64,000 nucleotides of DNA from the NCBI RefSeq assembly GCF_002240055.1, contig NZ_CP016753.1, forward strand, positions 806,001 through 870,000, in the 5' to 3' direction. The notes beneath the pieces were generated by a model. It was not told the DNA's origin. It saw only the letters and a list, made by a program, of their open reading frames with translations, and ran no database searches. Position 1 is the stretch's first letter. Each line of letters opens with the position of its first letter. Source of the DNA: Leptotrichia sp. oral taxon 498. Its GTDB lineage: Bacteria; Fusobacteriota; Fusobacteriia; Fusobacteriales; Leptotrichiaceae. The translations under genes and the position numbers were made by a program. Positions 35,889 to 37,771 of the stretch are shown in pieces.

Positions 35889-36333
35889 TAAATAGTGCAA
35901 GAACATTCGCGACGCAAGGAGTGAGATAATTGCACGAAAATTTTAGTAAGCATATAGGGAAACTTGTATGTGGACACGGAGCAAAACCGTGCAACAAAGA
36001 AACTGAACTGCTGGGAACTCTTAAAGCTAGTATAACCACAACATAATACCTTCGTTAAAATATGGTATAGGTGTGAAGGTGGCGAAAGCAGAAAAAATAT
36101 ACTAGATGGTGCAAGGTTAAATCCTAAACATTATGATAATAGACAATCAGCAGCTAAGCCTGAAAAGGAAAGTTCAACGACTATCCCTCGTGAGGGGAGT
36201 ACAATACAAGCGATTGGTATTGGAAGTGGTTTCGCCTAAGTCCTTGAAATAGGATATGGATAAGATATAGTCTGTGCTTGTTAGAGATAACAAGAAGTTC
36301 ATAAGAGAACTGCATAAATGGTAGCGTATTTAT
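35889..36333 (+). ncRNA. Group I intron catalytic core (IA-like)
   Basis: The four conserved core segments occur in order: P AATTGCACGAAA (35928-35939), Q AATCAGCAGC (36145-36154), R GTTCAACGACTA (36172-36183) and S AAGATATAGTC (36262-36272). R and S pair as P7 (GACTA/TAGTC). Between R and P8 are hairpins CCCTC/GAGGG (P7.1) and CAATAC/GTATTG (P7.2), which mark subgroup IA. TCCT/AGGA before S fits P8. After S come P9-type stems CTTGTT/AACAAG, AGTTC/GAACT and ATAAAT/ATTTAT up to 36333. The long P-to-Q distance means a large peripheral P5 domain. Confidence 0.88.
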
Positions 36334-36447
36334 GTGAACGACGCTTCCCGCTGTTGTGGGGTTTTAAAAACTTTAAAAATATTTAAAAATAAACAGATAA
36401 ATGTAGAATGATGGTATAATATCTCTGATGAAAAGGAGGTGATATCT

Positions 36448-37692
36448 ATGTATTTAACTTTAAAACAACAGGTAAAACATCTTAGCAAAAAGGAGTTTAG
36501 GAATTTAAAACATTTATCTCATATAGCCAAGAACTTAACTAATGAAGCTATATATAATATTAGACAGTATTATTTTAACAAGAAAAAGTATTTAAGCTAT
36601 AACGAAAACTATAAAATGCTTAAAAACAGTGAAAACTATAAGAAGTTAAATTCTAATATGGCTCAACAAATTCTAAAAGAAGCAGACGGAAGTTTTAAAT
36701 CATTTTTTGGGCTTTTAAAACTTGCTAAGAATGGTCAATATAATTTTAAAGATATAAAATTACCTAAATATCTTGCTAAAGATGGTTTTACAACTCTTGT
36801 TATAGGTTTTGTTAGAATAAAAGATGATATTCTGATAGTTCCTTATTCAAATTCGTTTAAGAAAACTCATCAGGAAGTTAAAATTAAACTACCACCAATA
36901 TTAAAAGGCAAGAAAATAAAAGAGATTAGGATAATACCCAAACAACATTCTAGGTACTTTGAAATTCAATATACTTACGAAGTAGAAGAAGTTCAAAGGG
37001 AATTAAATAAAGAAAATGCACTAGGAATTGATTTAGGTATAAACAATCTTTGCACTTGTGTTACAAATACTGGAGCTTCATTCATAATAGATGGTAGAAA
37101 ATTAAAATCAATAAATCAATACTATAACAAGATAAATGCAAAATTACAAAGCATAAAAGATAAGCAAAAGACCTCCCGAACAACATTAAGGCAAAAGAGA
37201 ATAGCTAGAAGGAGAAATAATCGTATAGAAGATTATCTTTCAAAAGCAGCAAGAATAATTGTAAATTATTGTCTTAATAATGATATAGGGAAAATAGTTC
37301 TAGGATATAATGAGGACTTTCAAAGAAATTCAAATATAGGAAGTATAAATAATCAAAATTTTGTAAATATACCATATAGAAAATTAAGAGATAAATTAGA
37401 ATATCTATCTAAGTTATATGGAATAGAATTTAAGCTGCAAGAAGAGAGTTATACATCAAAAGCAAGTTTCTTTGATGGAGATGAAATTCCAATATACGAT
37501 AAAGAAAATCCGCAAGAATATATATTCAGTGGAAAAAGGAAAAGAGGACTATATCAAACAAGCATAGGTAAACTCATAAATGCAGATTGTAACGGAGCAT
37601 TAAACATATTAAGAAAAAGTAAAGTTGTGGACTTAAGCGTCCTATACAATAGAGGTGAACTGAACATGCCTAAAAGAATAAGGGTAGTGTAA
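36448..37692 (+). CDS. tnpB: TnpB-family protein encoded in the IStron, with unusual RuvC motifs
   Basis: A 414-residue OrfB/TnpB-family protein of a different subgroup from the one at 30005. The first RuvC aspartate is D195 in GIDLGINN and the last is D380 in NADCNGALN. The second motif reads VLGYNEDF (E289) instead of the usual VxxEDL, and a separate EESYTSK (E332, E333) is conserved in this subgroup. There is no CxxC zinc finger. The start is the ATG at 36448 behind AAAGGAGGTGAT (36432-36443), a full 12-base match to the 16S 3' end. A TGG-TATAAT extended -10 at 36412-36420 could give separate transcription. Nuclease activity is likely but not certain. Confidence 0.9.
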   Translation: MYLTLKQQVKHLSKKEFRNLKHLSHIAKNLTNEAIYNIRQYYFNKKKYLSYNENYKMLKNSENYKKLNSNMAQQILKEADGSFKSFFGLLKLAKNGQYNFKDIKLPKYLAKDGFTTLVIGFVRIKDDILIVPYSNSFKKTHQEVKIKLPPILKGKKIKEIRIIPKQHSRYFEIQYTYEVEEVQRELNKENALGIDLGINNLCTCVTNTGASFIIDGRKLKSINQYYNKINAKLQSIKDKQKTSRTTLRQKRIARRRNNRIEDYLSKAARIIVNYCLNNDIGKIVLGYNEDFQRNSNIGSINNQNFVNIPYRKLRDKLEYLSKLYGIEFKLQEESYTSKASFFDGDEIPIYDKENPQEYIFSGKRKRGLYQTSIGKLINADCNGALNILRKSKVVDLSVLYNRGELNMPKRIRVV

Positions 37693-37771
37693 AGCTATCA
37701 AACTTCTTAGAAAATTTTTGAATAATTTTAAAGATTTTAGAACCCTGTGACTTTAGTCGTGGGAGGTTCAG
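37693..37771 (+). ncRNA. IStron right end: guide-RNA scaffold and intron 3' end
   Basis: The terminal hairpin GAACC/GGTTC (37740-37744, 37765-37769) encloses GACT/AGTC, and the element ends at G37771. This piece would be both the 3' splice site of the intron and the scaffold of the TnpB guide RNA, with the following exon bases acting as guide. These roles are known for IStrons in clostridia and are inferred here. Confidence 0.7.

What the first reader, a model, noticed from the sequence alone, without database searches (positions are those of the whole stretch)
35889..37771. An IStron (group I intron plus TnpB) interrupts a chromate transporter and can be removed to restore the gene exactly
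Seen: ordered P, Q, R, S core segments, P7.1/P7.2 hairpins, a TnpB gene downstream of the core, an IS605-type 3' hairpin. The base before the element is T and its last base is G, the group I rule. Joining 35888 to 37772 turns two broken frames into one of 181 codons. Known: this architecture was found in Clostridioides difficile (CdISt1) and later in other clostridia, where intron splicing and guide-RNA formation compete. In a fusobacterium it would be a notable occurrence; I cannot tell if it has been reported.
Basis: partly seen in the sequence, partly recalled or inferred. Interest (0 to 1): 0.9.

Follow-up and report, generated by a model that had tools for sequence, protein, structure and literature searches.

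The report
Self-splicing jumping gene inside chromate transporter
A mobile DNA element that carries its own self-splicing RNA sits inside a transporter gene and is built so that it can be cut out of the messenger RNA; such elements are already known, but the related genomes examined here show clear indirect signs that the splicing works.

Summary
35889-37771 is a group A IStron: a group IA2 intron plus an IS200/IS605 TnpB gene, in sense inside a chrA chromate-transporter gene. Of 53 copies with resolved ends, 52 follow TTTAT and all end TTCAG. Ten same-genus empty sites align without gaps through the predicted join. The intron fold is supported by covariation: 94% of cells paired and 34 pairs changed on both sides, against at most 43% and 15 when slid. 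This includes a target-guide link: TTTAT with GUAAG, TTGAT with GUCAG. 40 of the 53 lie in genes in sense, 1 antisense; one splits the only strong dnaB match of its genome. Splicing therefore probably works, but no RNA was seen, and RF00028 does not report the window copy itself. It is not new to fusobacteria: IStrons were reported in Fusobacterium nucleatum (2007) and Leptotrichia buccalis (2014). This seems a different subtype from LbISt1. Less expected are about 310-bp mini-elements that keep the ends and presumed guide-RNA region but lack ribozyme core and TnpB; 7 of 7 with resolved ends are intergenic at a 100-codon cut-off.

The parts
35458..35888 (+). 5' exon of the host gene chrA (short-chain chromate transporter), ending in TTTAT
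   Evidence: PF02417 2.9e-46; joined frame; homologues
35884..35888 (+). TTTAT: transposon target, presumed TnpB TAM, and the exon side of P1; its last base is the U of the U.G pair
   Evidence: 52 of 53 copies follow TTTAT; P1 pairs
35889..37771 (+). whole IStron, 1883 bp
   Evidence: ends shared by 53 of 53 resolved copies, 52 of them after TTTAT; empty sites
35889..36341 (+). group IA2 intron part, up to the GAACGA motif (36336-36341) after which the IS component begins
   Evidence: covariation on 19 introns; motif as described in PMC4227781 section 14
35946..35950 (+). internal guide sequence GUAAG, pairs with exon UUUAU (P1); GUCAG in the TTGAT subtype
   Evidence: column pair 3/75: U-A in 13, G-C in 6 of 19
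35999..36003 (+). P3 5' strand (pairs with 36229-36233)
   Evidence: 4 of 5 pairs changed on both sides, 100% paired
36008..36013 (+). P4 5' strand (pairs with 36148-36153)
   Evidence: 100% paired; 5 of 6 pairs never vary
36179..36184 (+). P7 5' strand (pairs with 36267-36272), G-binding-site helix
   Evidence: invariant in 19 sequences, so uninformative on covariation
36185..36222 (+). P7.1 and P7.2 hairpins
   Evidence: 96.1% and 92.9% paired, 1 and 3 pairs changed on both sides
36229..36233 (+). P3 3' strand
36267..36272 (+). P7 3' strand
36347..36361 (+). left hairpin of the IS part (CCCGC...GTGGG); lies in a stretch complementary to the right end
   Evidence: sequence; inverted BLAST match of element 471-502 to the right end of sister copies and of the mini-element
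36448..37692 (+). tnpB (414 aa, ATG start), IS200/IS605 OrfB; zinc-ribbon cysteines absent
   Evidence: PF01385, PF07282; dN/dS about 0.16 over 150 pairs of 52 copies; alignment
37581..37771 (+). 3' end of tnpB plus right end: presumed omega-RNA scaffold (inferred)
   Evidence: the mini-elements keep this stretch; fold z -1.37, not significant
37743..37763 (+). IS200/IS605-type right-end hairpin
   Evidence: sequence; right ends of the copies
37772..37791 (+). presumed guide of the omega-RNA, first bases of the 3' exon (inferred)
   Evidence: matches the G004 empty site for 24 bases after TTTAT
37772..37886 (+). 3' exon of chrA with stop codon (37884-37886)
   Evidence: joined frame of 181 codons; homologues

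Best explanation
This is a group A IStron, a group IA2 self-splicing intron fused to an IS200/IS605-type TnpB unit, inserted in sense after a TTTAT target in chrA. Transcribed with the host gene, the intron folds, its guide GUAAG pairs with the exon's UUUAU to place the 5' splice site at the U.G pair, and two transesterifications would remove all 1883 nt and join UUUUAU to UGACUGG, restoring a 181-codon frame (inferred, not shown). When the transcript is not spliced, the TnpB mRNA and its 3' omega-RNA carrying the downstream exon as guide could be made. TnpB would then cut the empty TTTAT-TGACTGG allele and so help to retain the element (inferred from what is recalled of the family). The element has no TnpA and would rely on a transposase in trans.
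For: Ends and target in 53 resolved copies of 55. Empty sites equal to the join. Structure: 94.0% of 1807 cells paired, 34 of 97 pairs with two-sided changes, 0 of 500 shuffles as high on either; slid versions at most 43.3% and 15. P1 covariation between target and guide, U-A 13 / G-C 6. Sense bias: 40 sense, 1 antisense, 12 intergenic of 53; 37, 1 and 12 as independent sites. The only strong DnaB_C match of G003 is split by such an element at model positions 133/134. Mini-elements without the ribozyme core: 0 of 7 genic against 41 of 53 full copies at a 100-codon cut-off, Fisher p 1.3e-4. TnpB dN/dS about 0.16.
Against: No RNA evidence at this locus. RF00028 does not report the window copy. 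Part of the sense bias comes from co-orientation with neighbouring genes: same-strand TTTAT sites nearby, when genic, are already 82% sense, and against that 40 of 41 gives p 0.0027. G003 has a third DnaB_C match, 32.6 bits over a cut-off of 27, in another 457-aa frame. At an 80-codon cut-off one mini-element counts as genic, antisense. The host chrA looks like a chimaera lacking its partner, so the need to splice here is uncertain. The RuvC glutamate is not conserved across the wider subfamily. Synonymous constraint over the last 40 codons, where the omega-RNA should lie, was not significant, p 0.20, nor was the fold of that end.
Confidence: 0.88

Rival explanations
1. It is an IStron by descent, but the window copy no longer splices, so chrA is simply disrupted.
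For: RF00028 misses this copy. It lacks a peripheral insertion of about 40 nt near P9.1 that some copies have. The chrA gene looks like a chimaera without its partner. Copies predicted inactive are described in F. nucleatum (PMC1924603, passages).
Against: All named core helices are intact in the window copy, and its core stretches equal the majority of 23 copies. The same short P9.1 form occurs in a sense copy in dnaB (L118, the same place as L013). The joined frame is open.
Confidence: 0.12
2. It is an ordinary IS200/IS605 TnpB element whose upstream non-coding part only resembles an intron; it can be excised as DNA but not as RNA.
For: Target TTTAT, TnpB and right-end hairpin all fit a plain IS605-type element. 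TnpB relatives with no intron match beside them exist (L006, L008, L180).
Against: Covariation of the group I fold including P1 with the exon. RF00028 matches in 8 of 13 genus genomes, the own one included. Sense bias and the split dnaB.
Confidence: 0.03
3. The sense bias reflects lagging-strand insertion of IS605 elements into co-oriented genes and says nothing about splicing (a rival for that one line of evidence only).
For: Element orientation follows the neighbouring genes: same-strand TTTAT sites outside the host gene are 306 sense and 68 antisense.
Against: Even against that baseline 40 of 41 is unlikely (p 0.0027), and mini-elements with the same ends but no ribozyme core are intergenic in 7 of 7 at 100 codons. 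It does not explain a split dnaB.
Confidence: 0.15

Closest known systems
LbISt1 of Leptotrichia buccalis (group A IStron, PMC4227781)
   Same: Group IA2 intron plus TnpB, TCAG end, 5' target motif, one copy. The element in genus genome G001 (L147) measures 1755 bp, or 1760 with its TTGAT; LbISt1 is listed at 1760 bp.
   Different: If G001 (2,465,610 bases) is L. buccalis (size recalled, not looked up), LbISt1 uses TTGAT, a GUCAG guide and a different TnpB (369-aa type with CxxC in L146 and L148; the open frame in L147 is 311 aa). The window element uses TTTAT, GUAAG and a 414-aa TnpB without the zinc ribbon.
FnISt1 and FnISt2 of Fusobacterium nucleatum (PMC1924603, PMC4227781)
   Same: Group A IStrons with truncated ORF A. 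Two of 12 genomes of one genus of the same order carry pieces 66-82% identical to the window's TnpB, all partial, besides one 27% match to another TnpB.
   Different: The five FNP copies were reported after TTGAT. Whether FnISt2 is the same subtype as the window element could not be tested.
CdISt1 of Clostridioides difficile
   Same: Same group, IS200/IS605 family, TCAG end, self-splicing reported (PMC4227781 and PMC1924603 passages).
   Different: CdISt1 can carry a full ORF A; the window element has none. CdISt1 was not aligned here.
BcISt1 and other group B IStrons (IS607 type)
   Same: Group IA2 intron plus TnpB-type ORF B.
   Different: They insert after GG and mostly end CGG, with IS607-type ORF A; the window element inserts after TTTAT and ends TCAG.

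Membership tests
Group A IStron | Group IA2 intron with P7.1/P7.2 and extended P9 domain | tested here: met
   All named helices placed; 94% of cells paired, 34 pairs with two-sided changes. RF00028 reports two sister copies but not the window copy.
[quoted passage not shown]
   TTTAT in 52 of 53 copies, the window's included
Group A IStron | 3' end TCAG, no target duplication | tested here: met
   53 of 53 end TTCAG; empty sites show no duplication
Group A IStron | IS part begins after a GAACGA-like motif downstream of P9.2 | tested here: met
   GAACGA at 36336-36341; motif from PMC4227781 section 14
Group A IStron | IS200/IS605-family ORF B (TnpB) | tested here: met
   PF01385 3e-30, PF07282 2.2e-8
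Group A IStron | ORF A (TnpA), full or truncated; not required, since members with ORF B only are listed | tested here: not met
   None of the 4 Y1 transposase matches of the genome lies in the element. Truncated remnants were not searched for otherwise.
Group A IStron | RNA self-splicing | not testable with these tools
   Only indirect: genic sense bias and the split dnaB
TnpB RNA-guided nuclease | RuvC D-E-D residues | tested here: inconclusive
   Both aspartates align with canonical-type TnpBs; the glutamate (GYNE) does not align with theirs and is V or K in two of four subfamily members
TnpB RNA-guided nuclease | omega-RNA at the 3' end with the guide outside the element | tested here: inconclusive
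   Mini-elements keep this stretch, but synonymous constraint (p 0.20) and fold (z -1.37) are not significant

The most novel reading that the evidence does not exclude
The about 310-bp mini-elements are stand-alone guide-RNA genes derived from IStrons. They keep the transposon ends, the P1/P2 region and a piece upstream of tnpB together with the omega-RNA, have shed ribozyme and nuclease, and use TnpB from full IStrons in the same cell to hold their sites. They are confined to intergenic places because they can no longer splice out of genes.
Probability: 0.3. Interest if true: 0.65.

Novelty: new member of a known kind. Interest (0 to 1): 0.45.

Why it matters
The element itself is a known kind. 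Its genus is a good natural test bed: dozens of closely related IStrons in near-complete genomes, two subtypes whose target site and splice guide differ together, an insertion splitting the only strong dnaB match of one genome, and ribozyme-less derivatives with the same ends as a built-in control. This makes the question how far splicing protects hosts from a transposon, and how it trades off with guide-RNA production, directly measurable with ordinary RNA sequencing.

Tried and rejected
Rfam scans of the window and of three introns of the own genome did not report a group I intron. The family search over genomes did, for sister copies; the scans were therefore not taken as evidence against. 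A search of solved structures with TnpB gave no match at E 0.001. TnpA sources: the genome has four Y1 transposases; in the one locus looked at (L142) it sits next to another TnpB. The ends of the IStron gave no convincing match in those four loci (best 1.9e-5, 72.6% over 62 bases of A+T-rich sequence in L145). Synonymous constraint and folding of the presumed omega-RNA were not significant. A literature search for rearranged TnpB active sites returned no paper. The 2024 work on competition between IStron splicing and guide RNAs is recalled and was not listed; three listed papers hold the phrase 'transposon-encoded introns' once each and were not read. Literature searches on IStrons, Leptotrichia introns and TnpB mini-elements. 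The titles and abstract starts there mention no ribozyme-less IStron derivative; the papers were not read for it, apart from PMC4227781, whose parts seen here describe ORF-less BcISt1 copies.

Full report
What is there. The window lies at 806001-870000 of a single-contig genome of 2.15 Mb. At 35458 a short-chain chromate transporter gene (PF02417, 2.9e-46) is broken after TTTAT at 35888 by an element of 1883 bp that ends GGGAGGTTCAG at 37771. Joining the flanks gives an open frame of 181 codons. Unspliced, the frame ends at 35895, just inside the element. The element holds a group I intron region (to GAACGA at 36336-36341), a left hairpin, tnpB (414 aa from the ATG at 36448) and a right-end hairpin.

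Boundaries. The TnpB query found 4 matches in the own genome: 3 full copies and one fragment that belongs to a mini-element. It found matches in 11 of 60 genomes, the own one included. In one genome (G006) only 30 of 50 candidates were scored, so counts are lower bounds. I fetched 55 near-full-length copies from 8 genomes, 7 of one genus (own included) and one (G022) of a neighbouring genus; shorter matches were left out. Both ends were resolved in 53 (L093 and L122 dropped). All 53 start TAAATA[A/G] and end TTCAG; 52 follow TTTAT and one follows TTATT. The 3' flank varies. This removes the one-base ambiguity at the window locus.

Empty sites. ChrA homologues were found in 57 of 60 genomes, the own one included. 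Thirteen of the 29 other loci fetched were aligned around the junction. The 10 from the same genus run through the join without a gap, and the 3 from the same family show no insertion at the join, though they have small gaps elsewhere. In G004 the empty site carries TTTAT followed by 24 bases identical to the window's 3' exon.

The ribozyme. Of 59 introns located, 19 were aligned: 13 of 53 of the TTTAT type, chosen by hand for diversity and including the window, and all 6 of a second, TTGAT type found through RF00028. I wrote the group I helices from the window sequence and recalled group I anatomy, and counted pairs on this MAFFT alignment, which was not fitted to the structure. 94.0% of 1807 cells pair and 34 of 97 pairs show changes on both sides; no shuffle of 500 reached these, nor the covariation score; 3 of 500 reached the count of further pair types. 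Sliding partners by 1-3 columns gives at most 43.3% and 15; since the structure came from one of the sequences, the percentage is favoured by that alone. P3 changes on both sides in 4 of 5 pairs. P7 never varies and so is uninformative. The outer helices labelled P2.1 and P2y are weak (64% and 75% paired). RNAalifold unaided found P3, P4, P5, P6, P7.1, P7.2, P8, P9, P9.1 and P9.2, but not P1, P2 or P7, the last of which it cannot draw together with P3. The window intron folds better than 100 shuffles, z -3.25. Against this, RF00028 does not report the window copy in any search, although it reports two sisters in the same genome, one above and one below the cut-off.

Target and splice guide differ together. 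The TTTAT type has guide GUAAG and the TTGAT type has GUCAG. In the alignment the third base pair of P1 is U-A in 13 and G-C in 6 sequences. One base of this pair lies in the host exon, that is, in the transposon's target site. This is direct comparative evidence that the sequence chosen by the transposon is the sequence read by the intron. It rests on two clades, so it may be a single evolutionary event. A more distant copy in a Selenomonadaceae MAG has a TTTAT and a GTAAG stretch upstream of its intron core, read by eye with the ends unresolved.

Signs that splicing works in relatives. Of 53 full copies, 40 lie in an open frame of at least 100 codons in sense, 1 antisense and 12 between such frames. 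With cut-offs of 80 and 120 codons the counts are 40, 2, 11 and 38, 0, 15. Collapsing three shared sites gives 37, 1 and 12. TTTAT sites elsewhere in the same flanks, both strands, give 547, 751 and 467. Element orientation follows the neighbouring genes, so the fairer baseline is same-strand sites outside the host gene: 306 sense, 68 antisense, 158 intergenic. Against it, 40 of 41 gives p 0.0027, and the intergenic share does not differ (p 0.30). Host genes include dnaB, uvrB, mutL, ruvB, recG-like, queA and TRCF-like genes by Pfam (30 of 40 genic copies scanned there, plus chrA; 9 not scanned; 5 without a match). In G003 a search for DnaB_C found the two halves of the interrupted gene, meeting at model positions 133/134 (135.1 and 180.7 bits), and one weaker match of 32.6 bits, over the cut-off of 27, in an unrelated 457-aa frame whose identity was not checked. 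DnaB is essential in bacteria (general knowledge), so unless that third frame replaces it or the assembly is mixed, this copy must be removed at the RNA level. TnpB is under purifying selection: dN/dS about 0.16 over 150 pairs of 52 copies.

Mini-elements. Eight elements of about 302-320 bp were found in 5 genomes including the window's own (1643869-1644180); only 12 candidates per genome were scored, so there may be more. They hold about the first 80 nt of the IStron (P1/P2 with the guide), a short piece from upstream of tnpB and about the last 190 nt. They lack the ribozyme core and nearly all of tnpB. Of 7 with resolved ends (L133 dropped), all follow TTTAT and end TTCAG. All 7 are intergenic at 100 and 120 codons; at 80 codons one counts as antisense in a 93-codon frame. 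Against 41 of 53 genic full copies this gives Fisher p 1.3e-4. The simplest reading is that loss of the ribozyme confines the element to non-coding DNA. Whether they make working guide RNAs is not known; folding and synonymous constraint of this stretch in full copies were not significant.

What is known. F. nucleatum subsp. polymorphum IStrons were described in 2007 (PMC1924603, passages). A 2014 survey listed 16 IStrons, including FnISt1, FnISt2 and LbISt1, and defined group A by the same targets, TCAG end and IS family, with IA2 class and a GAACGA-like junction in all IStrons (PMC4227781, sections 14 and 15 and passages). The genomes searched here are unnamed. Genus genome G001 has 2,465,610 bases, which I recall as the size of L. 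buccalis; its single RF00028 match belongs to an element that follows TTGAT and measures 1755 bp, 1760 with its TTGAT, which fits LbISt1. On that reading the genus is Leptotrichia and the window element is a different subtype. Related TnpBs with intron sequence beside them also occur on a Paenibacillus larvae plasmid and, with a partial intron, on a Finegoldia magna plasmid; neither host is in Table 1 of that survey.

Limits. No RNA was examined. The host gene here looks like a chimaera of two tandem chrA genes and lacks its partner, so the benefit of splicing at this site is uncertain. TnpB lacks the zinc ribbon, and its RuvC glutamate does not align with canonical-type TnpBs, so nuclease activity is unproven. 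The element's transposase is unknown.

Verdict. Confirmed, well supported and of a known kind: a new member of the group A IStrons in a fusobacterium that is probably a Leptotrichia. The genus-wide evidence and the mini-elements are the parts worth following.

Noticed in passing
35458-35888: The chrA gene looks like a fusion of two tandem paralogues: its start resembles the upstream partner of relatives and the rest the downstream one; no partner lies beside it here.
   Followed up: partly
L131 (G000 1643869-1644180) and L132-L138: A family of about 310-bp mini-elements with IStron ends and the 3' tnpB/right-end stretch but no ribozyme core or TnpB; 7 of 7 with resolved ends are intergenic at 100 codons.
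   Followed up: partly
L118 (G003 dnaB): The only strong DnaB_C match of this relative is split by an IStron; a 32.6-bit match elsewhere was not identified.
   Followed up: partly
L150 (G004 1932407-1938745): Two TTGAT-type group I introns with no TnpB found lie about 965 bp apart; the frame between them looked like a precorrin reductase gene by eye.
   Followed up: no
L178 (Paenibacillus larvae plasmid) and L179 (Finegoldia magna pFMC): Window-type TnpB next to intron sequence; in P. larvae a second intron copy without TnpB lies downstream, in F. magna only the 3' part of the intron aligns.
   Followed up: partly
intron alignment of 23 copies: Peripheral hairpins (near P5, before the 3' strand of P4, P8, P9.1) come in a few alternative cassettes that occur in mixed combinations among copies, as if copies recombine.
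   Followed up: no
L153, L156 (G020, G027): Divergent group I introns matching RF00028 (66.5 and 58.6 bits) in same-family genomes; host genes not identified.
   Followed up: no
3935-8711 and 13947-18881: Two rRNA operons whose 16S genes start about 10 kb apart.
   Followed up: no
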